DNA of 64,000 bases from positions 23,196 through 87,195 of the IMG/VR virus record IMGVR_UViG_3300032093_000065. One strand, written 5' to 3'. The number at the start of each line of letters is the position of its first letter. Position 1 is the stretch's first letter. A model generated the notes under the pieces. That model searched no databases and was not told the origin of the DNA. It saw nothing but the letters and a program-made list of their open reading frames with translations. Both the position numbers and the translations under genes were made by a program. This DNA comes from a virus. This document shows, one piece after another, positions 28,988-60,849 of this stretch.

Positions 28988-29274
28988 CACTCCCCTCCTT
29001 CGCCCGGCAGCGGGCCGATTGGTCGCCAGTAATCCACCGGCTTAATTTCCCAACGGTCATTTTCCCAGTAATTATCCGACCATGATACAATATTATTTCG
29101 ACAGGTGGCTACTATATATCGGCCTTCAAGGGTAGGCGGCTCGGTGTGAGCATTCCGCCAGCGATTCAGGTCTTCCAGTTTTACGAGTTGCTCCAGCAGT
29201 CTGGAGTTTTCCCATATAAGGTTTTTGAACATCCTTTCCCAGTAGAAAGCTGGGTCATTGTCATCCTCACTCAT
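28987..29274 (-). CDS. DUF551-like protein, copy 2
   Basis: The 95-aa product has a helical N-terminal half (AFYWERMFKNLIWENSRLLE) and the DUF551-like half (RWRNAHTEPPTLEGRYIVAT, then WRPIGPLPGEGGE). Its coding DNA is repeated almost perfectly at 29974-30255. Start ATG 29274 overlaps the previous stop. Confidence 0.65.
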   Translation of the reverse strand: MSEDDNDPAFYWERMFKNLIWENSRLLEQLVKLEDLNRWRNAHTEPPTLEGRYIVATCRNNIVSWSDNYWENDRWEIKPVDYWRPIGPLPGEGGE

Positions 29275-29317
29275 CACTCACCTCCTTCGCCCGGCAGCGG
29301 GCCGATTGGTCGCCAGT
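29003..29317. repeat. Direct repeat, copy 1 of DUF551-like duplication
   Basis: Bases 29003-29279 appear identical to 29984-30260 (offset 981). Similarity continues to about 29317/30298 with a few changes. The duplicated unit covers nearly a whole DUF551-like gene plus the next gene's end module. Confidence 0.85.
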
Positions 29318-29973: not shown

Positions 29974-30255
29974 TCACTCGCCTCCCGGCAGCGGGCCGAT
30001 TGGTCGCCAGTAATCCACCGGCTTAATTTCCCAACGGTCATTTTCCCAGTAATTATCCGACCATGATACAATATTATTTCGACAGGTGGCTACTATATAT
30101 CGGCCTTCAAGGGTAGGCGGCTCGGTGTGAGCATTCCGCCAGCGATTCAGGTCTTCCAGTTTTACGAGTTGCTCCAGCAGTCTGGAGTTTTCCCATATAA
30201 GGTTTTTGAACATCCTTTCCCAGTAGAAAGCTGGGTCATTGTCATCCTCACTCAT
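29974..30255 (-). CDS. DUF551-like protein, copy 4 (duplicate of copy 2)
   Basis: The 93-aa product is identical to copy 2 except at the C-terminus (LPGGE instead of LPGEGGE). Near-perfect nucleotide identity means a recent duplication or ongoing gene conversion. Confidence 0.65.
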   Translation of the reverse strand: MSEDDNDPAFYWERMFKNLIWENSRLLEQLVKLEDLNRWRNAHTEPPTLEGRYIVATCRNNIVSWSDNYWENDRWEIKPVDYWRPIGPLPGGE

Positions 30256-30298
30256 CACTCCCCTCCTTCGCCCGGCAACGGGCCGATTGGTCGCCAGT
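29984..30298. repeat. Direct repeat, copy 2 of DUF551-like duplication
   Basis: Second copy of the 29003-29317 repeat. The end module encoding WRPIGPLPGE (plus-strand GCCGATTGGTCGCCAGT) also occurs at the junctions near 28715, 29030, 29305, 30005 and 30290, marking likely recombination points. Confidence 0.85.
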
Positions 30299-33801: not shown

Positions 33802-34023
33802 ATATACCCGGTATCATGTAGACCTTGTTCGTCTCTTTCTTCTTTTTAAGAAGAAAGAATACACCTAAAAAAAAATTTACTCTAAACAAGTTAACTTTCT
33901 AAACATTACTTATTTGATAAACATTAAATTAAAAAAGCATTTTTGAGTAAATTTTTTTTTGAGTATATTCTTTCTTCTATAAGAAGAAAGAAACGAACAA
34001 GGTCTACATGATACCGGGTATAT
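33802..34023. repeat. Long AT-rich inverted repeat (~80-bp arms)
   Basis: Left arm 33802-33882 and right arm 33945-34023. The outer 31 bp (ATATACCCGGTATCATG...CTTGTTCGT) are perfectly inverted. The inner part is imperfect and each arm contains its own hairpin, TTTCTTCTT / AAGAAGAAAG. A 62-bp AT-rich centre separates the arms. It fills the largest AT-rich non-coding gap of this region, upstream of the HTH/AT-hook gene. Candidate replication origin, operator or cruciform; no gene within. Confidence 0.85.
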
Positions 34024-40007: not shown

Positions 40008-40043
40008 AGCGTTCCTTTCTTTAAACACAAACTTAGCTAGGTT

Positions 40044-40079
40044 AAATCGCTTGTCTTTTTTGAAAAAAGTCAAGTGATT
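40044..40079. repeat. T/A-tract inverted repeat, copy 1
   Basis: AAATCGCTTGTCTTTTTT / AAAAAAGTCAAGTGATT forms a near-perfect hairpin upstream of the deaminase start. It is a diverged copy of the hairpin at 40169-40205. Confidence 0.7.
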
Positions 40080-40168
40080 GGCTTTGCTAAGAAGTTTAGT
40101 AAAGAAAAGTTAACTAACTTGTTTTTAAATTTTTGTATAAAAAATTTACAAAAATTATAGCAAATGCC

Positions 40169-40205
40169 AAATCGCTTGACTTTTTTAAAAAAAGTCAAGC
40201 GATTT
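40169..40205. repeat. T/A-tract inverted repeat, copy 2 (terminator-like)
   Basis: AAATCGCTTGACTTTTTT / AAAAAAGTCAAGCGATTT is an almost perfect 18-bp inverted repeat 36 bp past the Cas12-like stop. The T-tract inside the stem makes it a likely bidirectional terminator. Between the two copies lies ~90 bp of AT-rich sequence with no gene. Confidence 0.7.
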
Positions 40206-40240
40206 GAACTCATACAACTTTGCGTGACAGCGTGACAAAC

Positions 40241-43005: not shown

Positions 43006-43287
43006 TTACTTACCTGCAGGCACTGCGATGTCAGGACCGTGCTTTTGATGCACAGTCTTGACAGCTTCCTTTTTAGGTGAGGCTACTAGGCCTTCCTTGC
43101 CCTTTGTTACTGGACTGATTGATCCATCAGACCAGCGAAGAGCGGGCGTTCCGTCCTTCTGGACGATGATCTCAACCTTCTCCGTATGACGAGCCTCTCG
43201 GCGCTCTTTAATCCTTTCAAAAACTCCGGCTGTCGCCGTGCTACCTACTACCAAAGCCGCGCTTGCTGCCAAAACGATTCTCAACAT
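43006..43287 (-). CDS. Secreted hypothetical protein
   Basis: The 93-aa product has a signal peptide (MLRIVLAASAALVVGSTATA) and a basic, polar mature part (FERIKERREARHTEKVEIIV, then DGTPALRWSDGSISPVT). It is co-directional with the secreted protein at 42611-42985. No recognised family. Confidence 0.6.
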   Translation of the reverse strand: MLRIVLAASAALVVGSTATAGVFERIKERREARHTEKVEIIVQKDGTPALRWSDGSISPVTKGKEGLVASPKKEAVKTVHQKHGPDIAVPAGK

Positions 43288-43315
43288 GTCAAAACCCTTT
43301 CTTAAGAAAACAAAA

Positions 43316-43487
43316 ACAGGAACTTCCTGTCTTACTGAAAATACGAGTTTCTGAGAAACCCGTCAGACCCTTAACCATTACTGGTTCGCCTCTCCTGGCG
43401 TTGCGTTTCATATTGAAACACTCAGGCTTAAGGGTAAGCCTTTTGATTGATACCCCTAGAGGCCTAGGTTGGCAAGGCCTCTAGGGG
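43316..43487 (-). ncRNA. Candidate structured RNA with chained hairpins and terminator
   Basis: Read leftward, perfect hairpins follow one another: CCCCTAGAGGCCT / AGGCCTCTAGGGG (43453-43487), AGGCTTACCCTTAAGCCT (43424-43441), GTTTCAATATGAAAC (43405-43419), CGCCAGGAGAGGCG (43387-43400), AACCAGTAATGGTT (43373-43386), GTTTCTCAGAAAC (43347-43359). The chain ends with ACAGGAAGTTCCTGT (43316-43330) plus TTTTTGTTTT, a terminator. The AGGCTT hairpin is identical to that opening each CRISPR leader. Further stems at 43513-43588 and no open frame extend the structured zone to the tRNA-Met 3' end. Confidence 0.55.
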
Positions 43488-43656
43488 TTTGATGCCTTTA
43501 AGTTGCTGCAGCATCGTTCCCGGTCCTGAAACGATTCTGGTGGTTAAGTGTCCTTAAGACGGTTGGAGTTATTACCATCAGACACTTCGTATGAGGTCTC
43601 GTACCGTTCCCTCCCTACCGCAGCAAAAGCTCCGACAAAGCTTTCCTCAAAGGCCA

Positions 43657-43729
<73 letters not shown>

Positions 43730-43747
43730 TTTTATTTTTACTGCCTT

Positions 43748-43962
43748 TCTCTTATCCACGCACACGTGGGTGAGACGCCCTGGTGGACCTGGCCGACTAT
43801 TCGTCCGTACCCCTTATCCACGCACGCGTGGGTGAGACGATGAGTTGGACAACTCCAACATTCCTCAAATCCCCCTTATCCACGCACGCGTGGGTGAGAC
43901 GATGACGCGGATGAAGCTTGGCTGGAAACGGTTCCCCTTATCCACGCACGCGTGGGTGAGAC
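43748..43962 (-). CRISPR. CRISPR array A (4 repeats, 3 spacers)
   Basis: 29-nt repeats lie at 43748-43776, 43810-43838, 43872-43900 and 43934-43962, with a period of exactly 62 and three different 33-nt spacers. In transcribed orientation (minus) the repeat starts GTCTCACCCACGCG and ends GTGGATAAGGGG with an internal CCACGC/GCGTGG stem, matching the type I-E repeat layout (29 nt, GnnnncCCC...GGATAAnnnG). The repeat furthest from the leader (43748) has three changes, normal for the trailer end. No cas gene adjoins it. Confidence 0.88.
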
Positions 43963-44031
43963 CCTAAAGTCTCACCAGTCCATCCGGACATTACAGTTCG
44001 TTACGAACTGTTTAGGCTTAAGGGTAAGCCT
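43963..44031 (-). promoter_or_regulatory. CRISPR leader A (hairpin leader)
   Basis: This 69-bp leader holds three hairpins on the minus strand: AGGCTTACCCTTAAGCCT, CAGTTCGTAACGAACTG and GTCCGGATGGAC. A further leader segment pairs with the first bases of the first repeat (GGTGAGAC...GTCTCACC). Nearly identical leaders precede arrays B and C. It begins immediately after the stop codon of the glycosyltransferase gene. Confidence 0.75.
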
Positions 44032-44568
44032 CTAACGTATGAAGTTATAGTAACAAAGATATTTGTCAAGTTTGGTGCAACCTACTTTGTCGTATATTTT
44101 TTCTGCGAGTATTCCGTCAGCCGCATACGCGCTTTCATGAAAACGAAAGTTCTTCAAAATTTCCCAACGAATCATAAAGCAAGCCGTGTCTATTATGTTA
44201 ACCCTTGGCTCAGTCACTGGCTTTAGTCTTATTTGTCCGTTCTTATGCAACTGACCCCAAACTATAAAGTTATTATTTTTTAAATGATCAGAGACCCCTT
44301 TCAGCCATTCTGGATGTACCACGTTGTCATCGTCCAAAAAATACACCCAGTCTGAGTCATCCGCCTGTAGATTTTCCATGACGTAGTTTCTAGTCATGTT
44401 TCCAAAATTTCCAGAATACGGCGACTTTACAATCTTGGCTTTTTCTACTATTACTTCTTTTTCTACTTTGGCGTCCAAGCCTATCCACCAAAGACAAGTC
44501 TCTGGTATAGATTTTTTTATTATCTCTAAGTTCTCAGGCCTAGAGCATGGTGTTATGATATGTATCAT
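44032..44568 (-). CDS. GT-A fold glycosyltransferase
   Basis: The 178-aa product starts MIHIITPCSRPENLEIIKKS, has SGNFGNMTRNYVMENLQADD and the DxD region WVYFLDDDNVVHPEWL, then ACFMIRWEIL. It is short, close to the minimal GT2 catalytic core. Its TAG stop abuts CRISPR leader A, so array A may be transcribed as the 3' part of this gene's mRNA. Substrate unknown. Confidence 0.75.
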   Translation of the reverse strand: MIHIITPCSRPENLEIIKKSIPETCLWWIGLDAKVEKEVIVEKAKIVKSPYSGNFGNMTRNYVMENLQADDSDWVYFLDDDNVVHPEWLKGVSDHLKNNNFIVWGQLHKNGQIRLKPVTEPRVNIIDTACFMIRWEILKNFRFHESAYAADGILAEKIYDKVGCTKLDKYLCYYNFIR

Positions 44569-59102: not shown

Positions 59103-59253
59103 CCCCTTATTCACGCGAGAGTGGGTGAGACGATCTAGGGGCGTCCACCACACAAATGCTCTCACCCTTATCCACGCACGCGTGGGTGAGACGCCTTGAG
59201 TATTAGGTCCTCAAAGCGCTTTTTCCCCTTATCCACGCACGCGTGGGTGAGAC
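59103..59253 (-). CRISPR. CRISPR array B (3 repeats, 2 spacers)
   Basis: Repeats lie at 59103-59131 (degenerate), 59164-59192 and 59225-59253, with a period of 61 and two different 32-nt spacers, the exact type I-E geometry (29+32). Repeat and leader are the same as in array A. Degeneracy is at the leader-distal end. Confidence 0.87.
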
Positions 59254-59321
59254 CCTAAGGTCTCACCGTCCATCCGGACATTACAGTTCGTTACGAACTG
59301 TTTAGGCTTAAGGGTAAGCCT
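59254..59321 (-). promoter_or_regulatory. CRISPR leader B
   Basis: A 68-bp copy of the hairpin leader. The leader end plus first repeat bases form a perfect GGTGAGACC TTAG GGTCTCACC hairpin on the minus strand. It begins directly after the TAA of the gene at 59322-60029. Confidence 0.75.
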
Positions 59322-60508: not shown

Positions 60509-60781
60509 ACTCACGACCAGGGTCGCGAGGGTGAGACCCTGAGGCCCCACGCTGCCGGATTTCATCCACCCCTTATCAACTCACGCGTGGTTGAGACAGG
60601 TGAGCATGGATGGTGAAAGGCCGGACTATCCCCTTATTCACGCACGCGTGGGTGAGACTCCTCAAAAGCGCCATTTCGCGATTTTCCAGGTCCCCTTATC
60701 CACGCACGCGTGGGTGAGACGATGGTAGAACCTCACGCAACTCGCCCTAATACCCCTTATCCACGCACGCGTGGGTGAGAC
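60509..60781 (-). CRISPR. CRISPR array C (5 repeats, 4 spacers)
   Basis: Repeats lie at 60753-60781, 60692-60720, 60630-60658 and 60569-60597 (partly degenerate), plus a strongly degenerate one ending at 60537. Four unique spacers of 31-33 nt separate them. Repeat quality falls steadily away from the leader. Repeat and leader match arrays A and B; spacers all differ. Confidence 0.87.
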
Positions 60782-60849
60782 CCTAAGGTCTCACCGTCCA
60801 TCCGGACATTACAGTTCGTTACGAACTGTTTAGGCTTAAGGGTAAGCCT
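60782..60849 (-). promoter_or_regulatory. CRISPR leader C
   Basis: A 68-bp copy, effectively identical to leader B. Here it is not preceded by a coding gene but by a 130-bp AT-rich gap (60850-60978) with one hairpin, ATGCTACC / GGTAGCAT; any promoter for array C should lie there. Confidence 0.72.

What the first reader, a model, noticed from the sequence alone, without database searches (positions are those of the whole stretch)
43316..43656. Orphan structured RNA sharing the CRISPR-leader hairpin
Between tRNA-Met and the gene at 43287 there is no open frame but at least seven perfect short hairpins in a row, ending in a Rho-independent terminator on the minus strand. One hairpin (AGGCTTACCCTTAAGCCT) is identical to the first hairpin of the CRISPR leaders. 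It could be a new phage ncRNA family, an anti-CRISPR-type RNA decoy, a guide scaffold for the Cas12-like protein, or a nuclease-resistant RNA.
Basis: partly seen in the sequence, partly recalled or inferred. Interest (0 to 1): 0.72.

Follow-up and report, generated by a model that had tools for sequence, protein, structure and literature searches.

The report
Phage RNA sharing CRISPR-leader hairpin module
Behind a tRNA gene, this uncultured phage encodes a roughly 340-base structured RNA that contains a diverged but still base-paired copy of the three-hairpin leader preceding its own three mini-CRISPR arrays, which suggests that the hairpins work as RNA, though what they do has not been shown.

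Summary
Minus strand 43656-43313 is non-coding and folds far better than shuffles (z -7.4; plus strand -3.1), with a chain of hairpins ending in a terminator. Hairpin 1 is identical (18/18) to the one opening all three CRISPR leaders in the window.

New result: the likeness covers a three-hairpin module of about 55 nt, aligned without gaps. Hairpin 1 is invariant. Hairpin 2 differs in five of eight pairs yet stays fully paired (four double compensatory changes, one G-U). Hairpin 3 has one more double change. The module is therefore probably kept as RNA structure, and the orphan is not a plain relic.

Arrays, orphan RNA and Cas12-like gene occur only in three near-identical records. In 48 related phage records no module was found; several join tRNA, short hairpin and the same 93-aa gene directly. 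In arrays 1 and 2 hairpin 1 starts at the base after the upstream stop codon.

Best mechanism (inferred, not shown): a cis-acting module shielding long untranslated RNA from Rho and RNases, or promoting read-through like HK022 put RNA. RNA anti-CRISPR (no repeat), tracr/guide RNA (no anti-repeat) and known Rfam families found no support.

The parts
43657..43729 (-). tRNA-Met (CAT), directly 5' of the RNA
43491..43656 (-). Domain A: closed multibranch domain, 5' part of the RNA
   Evidence: z -4.0 minus, -1.4 plus
43452..43488 (-). 14-bp GC-rich hairpin without a U tract
   Evidence: z -6.6
43424..43441 (-). Hairpin 1, AGGCTTACCCTTAAGCCT, identical to the three CRISPR leaders
43403..43421 (-). 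Hairpin 2 (8-3-8), in register with the leaders; 4 double compensatory pairs, 1 G-U, 3 invariant, 0 broken
43387..43400 (-). Hairpin 3, in register with the leaders; 1 double compensatory pair, innermost leader pair lost
43367..43374 (-). TTAAGGGT, complementary to the apex of hairpin 1 (ACCCTTAA); mostly unpaired in the fold; possible tertiary contact, weak evidence
   Evidence: P 0.009 (3' part only) to 0.028 (whole RNA)
43343..43363 (-). 9-pair hairpin 5
43313..43333 (-). Terminator-like hairpin, T-rich tail; at the place where related phages have a terminator-like hairpin after a tRNA
43748..44031 (-). CRISPR array 1 (4 repeats, 3 spacers) with its hairpin leader 44031-43963; hairpin 1 begins at the base after the stop codon of the glycosyltransferase-like gene 44568-44032
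59103..59321 (-). CRISPR array 2 (3 repeats) with leader 59321-59254; hairpin 1 begins at the base after the stop codon of the upstream gene
60569..60849 (-). CRISPR array 3 (4 repeats plus a degenerate one beyond) with leader 60849-60782

Best explanation
The region encodes a minus-strand structured RNA of about 344 nt, probably transcribed together with CRISPR array 1 and tRNA-Met and ending at the terminator at 43313. Its 3' half carries a diverged copy of the three-hairpin module that opens the phage's three CRISPR leaders. I infer that the module acts in cis on RNA that is not translated: it forms as RNA polymerase leaves a gene or tRNA and keeps the following untranslated RNA intact, either by denying Rho and RNases an entry or by acting on the polymerase as a read-through element in the manner of HK022 put RNA. 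Shown: non-coding, strand-specific fold, shared module, compensatory changes, placement right after stop codons in two arrays. Inferred: transcription, co-transcription, the cis role and the choice between shield and read-through.
For: Strand-asymmetric fold. Gap-free in-register alignment of hairpins 1-3 with the leaders, 5 pairs changed on both sides, 96.7% of cells paired against 22-40% in slid controls; anchored identity 18/36 (4 of 5000 shuffles) and 11/12 leader pairs kept (5 of 20000 shuffles). The G-U pair in hairpin 2 is valid only as minus-strand RNA. No terminator found between array 1 and the orphan on the minus strand. Hairpin 1 starts right after a stop codon at arrays 1 and 2, where untranslated RNA begins. 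Rho termination in CRISPR leaders is documented (PMC6700203) and put RNA has two adjacent stem-loops of about 70 nt in two related copies (PMC9378689).
Against: One evolutionary contrast only (the leaders are near-identical to each other). No transcript data. No sigma-70-like promoter found in 43200-44200. Beyond hairpin 1 an unanchored alignment is not significant. The domain upstream of the module is unexplained by a cis role. No sequence link to put RNA was tested.
Confidence: 0.4

Rival explanations
1. Relic of a fourth CRISPR locus: the leader is left, repeats and spacers were lost, and the rest is incidental.
For: The likeness runs to the leader/repeat junction (TTAAGGGTCTGAC against CTTAGGGTCTCAC), and the orphan lies about 0.3 kb from array 1.
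Against: Changes in hairpin 2 are compensatory and none breaks a pair, unlike neutral decay; a 14-bp hairpin and domain A with z -4 are not leader parts; no repeat remnant.
Confidence: 0.2
2. Trans-acting phage RNA: a stable ncRNA released from the tRNA transcript that shares a binding factor with the CRISPR leaders through hairpin 1, and so titrates or recruits that factor.
For: Hairpin 1 is invariant while hairpin 2 keeps only pairing, as expected of a bound element; both ends of the RNA would be closed by helices after tRNA processing.
Against: No factor known; no homologues; no expression data.
Confidence: 0.2
3. RNA anti-CRISPR (Racr / solitary repeat unit) acting as a decoy for host Cascade.
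For: The phage carries type I-E-like arrays and the RNA shares the leader.
Against: No repeat-like stretch above chance (repeat against whole RNA 154/500 shuffles as good); Racrs mimic repeats (PMC10651486).
Confidence: 0.05
4. tracrRNA or guide scaffold for the Cas12-like protein at 41494-40241.
For: Both are confined to this lineage; the protein resembles Cas12f/Cas12u; a weak IS605-orfB-I Rfam match.
Against: No anti-repeat (repeat duplex -27.0, 22 of 200 shuffles as good); gene 1.8 kb away with other genes between; the Rfam match is far below its cut-off, breaks hairpins 1 and 2 and runs into the 93-aa gene.
Confidence: 0.05
5. DNA element: hairpin 1 is an operator palindrome or a recombination/integration site, RNA folding being secondary.
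For: Perfect 7-4-7 palindrome; the boundary of the duplicated leader unit lies at it; two deletions in G001 end inside it.
Against: Only four sites in the whole record, all in the module; strand-asymmetric folding and the U-G replacement favour RNA; the G001 deletions look like assembly errors.
Confidence: 0.06

Closest known systems
CRISPR leader of this phage's own type I-E-like mini-arrays
   Same: Hairpins 1-3 in register, hairpin 1 identical, part of the leader/repeat junction kept
   Different: No repeat or spacer follows; hairpin 4 (leader paired with repeat) is replaced; hairpin 2 sequence diverged
HK022 put RNA (PMC9378689)
   Same: Adjacent stem-loops in a short cis module, two or more related copies in one phage
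   Different: No sequence comparison made; put stems carry bulges and a triplex; no early promoter shown here; RNA polymerase binding untested
Racr / solitary repeat units (PMC10651486)
   Same: Small phage ncRNA with a CRISPR link
   Different: Racrs mimic the repeat; this mimics the leader and holds no repeat
GOLLD / ROOL ornate RNAs
   Same: Structured RNAs, some phage-linked and near tRNAs (general knowledge; PMC12286853 seen as abstract only)
   Different: Much larger (from memory); no Rfam match here

Membership tests
RNA anti-CRISPR (Racr/SRU) | Solitary CRISPR-repeat mimic | tested here: not met
RNA anti-CRISPR (Racr/SRU) | Promoter within 250 bp upstream | tested here: inconclusive
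   none by sigma-70 consensus in 43200-44200; phage promoters may differ
tracrRNA / Cas12 guide scaffold | Anti-repeat complementary to the CRISPR repeat | tested here: not met
IS605-orfB-I / TnpB-associated RNA (RF03065) | Score at or above the Rfam gathering score | tested here: not met
   17.8 bits, cut-off 94.2
put RNA | Two adjacent stem-loops in about 70 nt, related copies in one phage | tested here: met
   feature list from PMC9378689
put RNA | Shared sequence or structure detail with put | not tested
   no put sequence was compared
put RNA | Antitermination through the beta' zinc-binding domain of RNA polymerase | not testable with these tools
   needs transcription assays
CRISPR leader | Lies directly before a repeat-spacer array | tested here: not met
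   no repeat in the orphan; the three sister copies do
GOLLD, ROOL and other Rfam RNAs | Covariance-model match | tested here: not met
   only the tRNA reaches its gathering score

The most novel reading that the evidence does not exclude
A dedicated phage RNA module, built into its mini-CRISPR leaders and re-used in a tRNA-linked ncRNA, that controls transcription or stability of untranslated phage RNA (an RNA-only read-through element for CRISPR arrays) or lets the ncRNA compete in trans for a leader-binding factor.
Probability: 0.2. Interest if true: 0.75.

Novelty: new variant of a known kind. Interest (0 to 1): 0.45.

Why it matters
How phages transcribe and keep CRISPR arrays that lack their own cas operon is poorly understood. 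A leader made of RNA hairpins placed right after a stop codon, with the same module re-used in a separate ncRNA, points to an RNA-level control that can be tested with simple reporters. If it is an RNA-only read-through element it would join a very small class that includes put RNA.

Tried and rejected
Rfam at gathering and at relaxed thresholds: IS605-orfB-I hit rejected (below threshold, breaks the supported hairpins, enters a gene). blastn against phages and plasmids: the hits listed are to the tRNA or at chance level. Exact and relaxed patterns in IMG/VR: beyond the two near-identical strains only lone hairpins without the rest of the module. Repeat pattern in GTDB genomes twice: no host found. 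Covariance model over 48 related records: the weak hits examined lacked hairpin 2 or kept it only with mismatches, and those in G019-G021 lie in a proline/lysine-rich coding repeat. Spacers: no match in phage records nor in the loci held. Decayed gene in the region: no protein similarity beyond the tRNA. CRISPR-like repeat in relative L026: a hairpin repeat, not CRISPR.

Full report
Observation. The window is bases 23196-87195 of an 87 kb virus record, G000. Between tRNA-Met and the 93-aa gene at 43287 there is no plausible gene. On the minus strand the stretch folds much better than shuffles (z -6.4 for 43656-43300; -7.4 for 43656-43313), and the plus strand clearly less (-3.5; -3.1). The order along the RNA is: a 166-nt closed multibranch domain, a 14-bp hairpin, hairpins 1, 2 and 3, a 5-bp hairpin, a 9-bp hairpin, a terminator-like hairpin. 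Some other stretches nearby, coding ones included, also reach z of about -6 in 150-nt windows, so z alone is not proof.

The leader link. AGGCTTACCCTTAAGCCT occurs four times in the window: once here and once at the start of each CRISPR leader. The alignment runs without gaps through three hairpins. Hairpin 1 is identical. In hairpin 2 five of eight pairs differ and all remain paired: four changed on both sides, one became U-G. In hairpin 3 one pair changed on both sides, and the innermost leader pair is lost. Over the structure 96.7% of cells are paired, against 22-40% in slid controls. Anchored at hairpin 1, the next 36 nt match at 18 positions (mean 8.9 in shuffles; 4 of 5000 as high) and keep 11 of 12 leader pairs (mean 4.7; 5 of 20000 as high). 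Without the anchor, local alignment of the rest is not significant, so homology beyond hairpin 1 rests on register and pairing. The leaders are near-identical to each other, so this is one contrast, not many.

The arrays. Repeats are GTCTCACCCACGCGTGCGTGGATAAGGGG, 29 nt, with spacers of 32-33 nt, 3 or 4 clear repeats per array, degenerate at the far end; this is the geometry of type I-E (from general knowledge). The last bases of each leader pair with the start of the first repeat in a fourth hairpin. In arrays 1 and 2 hairpin 1 begins at the base after the stop codon of an intact co-directional gene, so there is no room for an intergenic promoter there. Array 3 has an A+T-rich stretch with a promoter-like site upstream.

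Distribution. Orphan and array 1 are identical in two further records, G001 and G002. Terminase and 235-aa-protein searches gave related phages; a covariance model of the module found nothing convincing in 12 plus 36 related records (weak hits checked), nor was the Cas12-like gene found there. Many of these records are fragments, so absence is not proof for each phage. In L016, L019, L020, L021 and L024 a tRNA is followed by a short terminator-like hairpin and then the same 93-aa gene, so the orphan appears to have been inserted between tRNA and terminator in this lineage.

Interpretation. Because pairing is kept through change on both sides, RNA (or a cruciform) is the selected form; U-G in place of C-G and the strand asymmetry favour minus-strand RNA. 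An invariant hairpin 1 beside a hairpin 2 that keeps only its pairing looks like a contacted element beside a scaffold. TTAAGGGT downstream can pair with the apex of hairpin 1, and AGGGTCT is also kept at the leader/repeat junction; significance is modest (P 0.01-0.03). All four copies sit in RNA that would not be translated, two of them right after a stop codon. This fits a cis element that protects untranslated RNA from Rho or RNases, or promotes read-through as HK022 put RNA does (PMC9378689); Rho termination in CRISPR leaders is documented (PMC6700203). The mechanism is inference.

Alternatives. A Racr-type decoy needs a repeat mimic, and none is present (PMC10651486). A tracrRNA needs an anti-repeat, and none was found. 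The IS605-orfB-I match is spurious. A plain relic is hard to reconcile with the compensatory changes. A trans-acting RNA sharing a binding partner with the leaders remains open.

Novelty. No homologue was found in Rfam, phage, plasmid or IMG/VR searches apart from the same phage population, and the repeat was not found in GTDB genomes. A hairpin leader shared between mini-CRISPR arrays and a repeat-free ncRNA was not met in the papers consulted, which is a limited reading of the literature. Phage mini-arrays without cas genes are themselves known (PMC7162821). I rate the finding a new variant of a known kind (structured phage cis/ncRNA), interest 0.45.

Noticed in passing
41494-40241 (-): Cas12f/Cas12u-like protein (PADLOC Cas12u3 E 3.5e-7) that ends where Cas12f continues into its last third; in the weak alignment to Cas12f 9i8y the RuvC-II position reads N where Cas12f has E. 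Probably nuclease-dead, like the phage dCas14 mentioned in PMC7162821. Found only in this lineage.
   Followed up: partly
59437-59316 and 60920-60844 (absent from G001): In G001 the leaders of arrays 2 and 3 both lack upstream DNA (122 and 77 nt), and both gaps end at the same base inside hairpin 1, while the flanks are 100% identical. One would truncate a conserved gene; probably an assembly error in a repeat, but not proven.
   Followed up: partly
40042-40205: Imperfect palindrome of about 160 bp with a perfect core at 40168-40206, just 3' of the Cas12-like gene.
   Followed up: no
33802-34023: Imperfect 222-bp palindrome, A+T-rich.
   Followed up: no
29003-29302 and 29984-30283: 300-bp direct repeat, 99% identical.
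   Followed up: no
43287-43006 and 42985-42611 (-): Two small proteins with secretion-signal-like starts (by eye), conserved behind tRNAs in related phages; no informative family match.
   Followed up: no
L026 1571-1683 and about 2104-2140: Dispersed hairpin repeat (GTTGCACTTAACTCATAATACTCTAAAGAGTATTATAATTG), two tandem copies and one inverted copy, in a related phage; not CRISPR.
   Followed up: no
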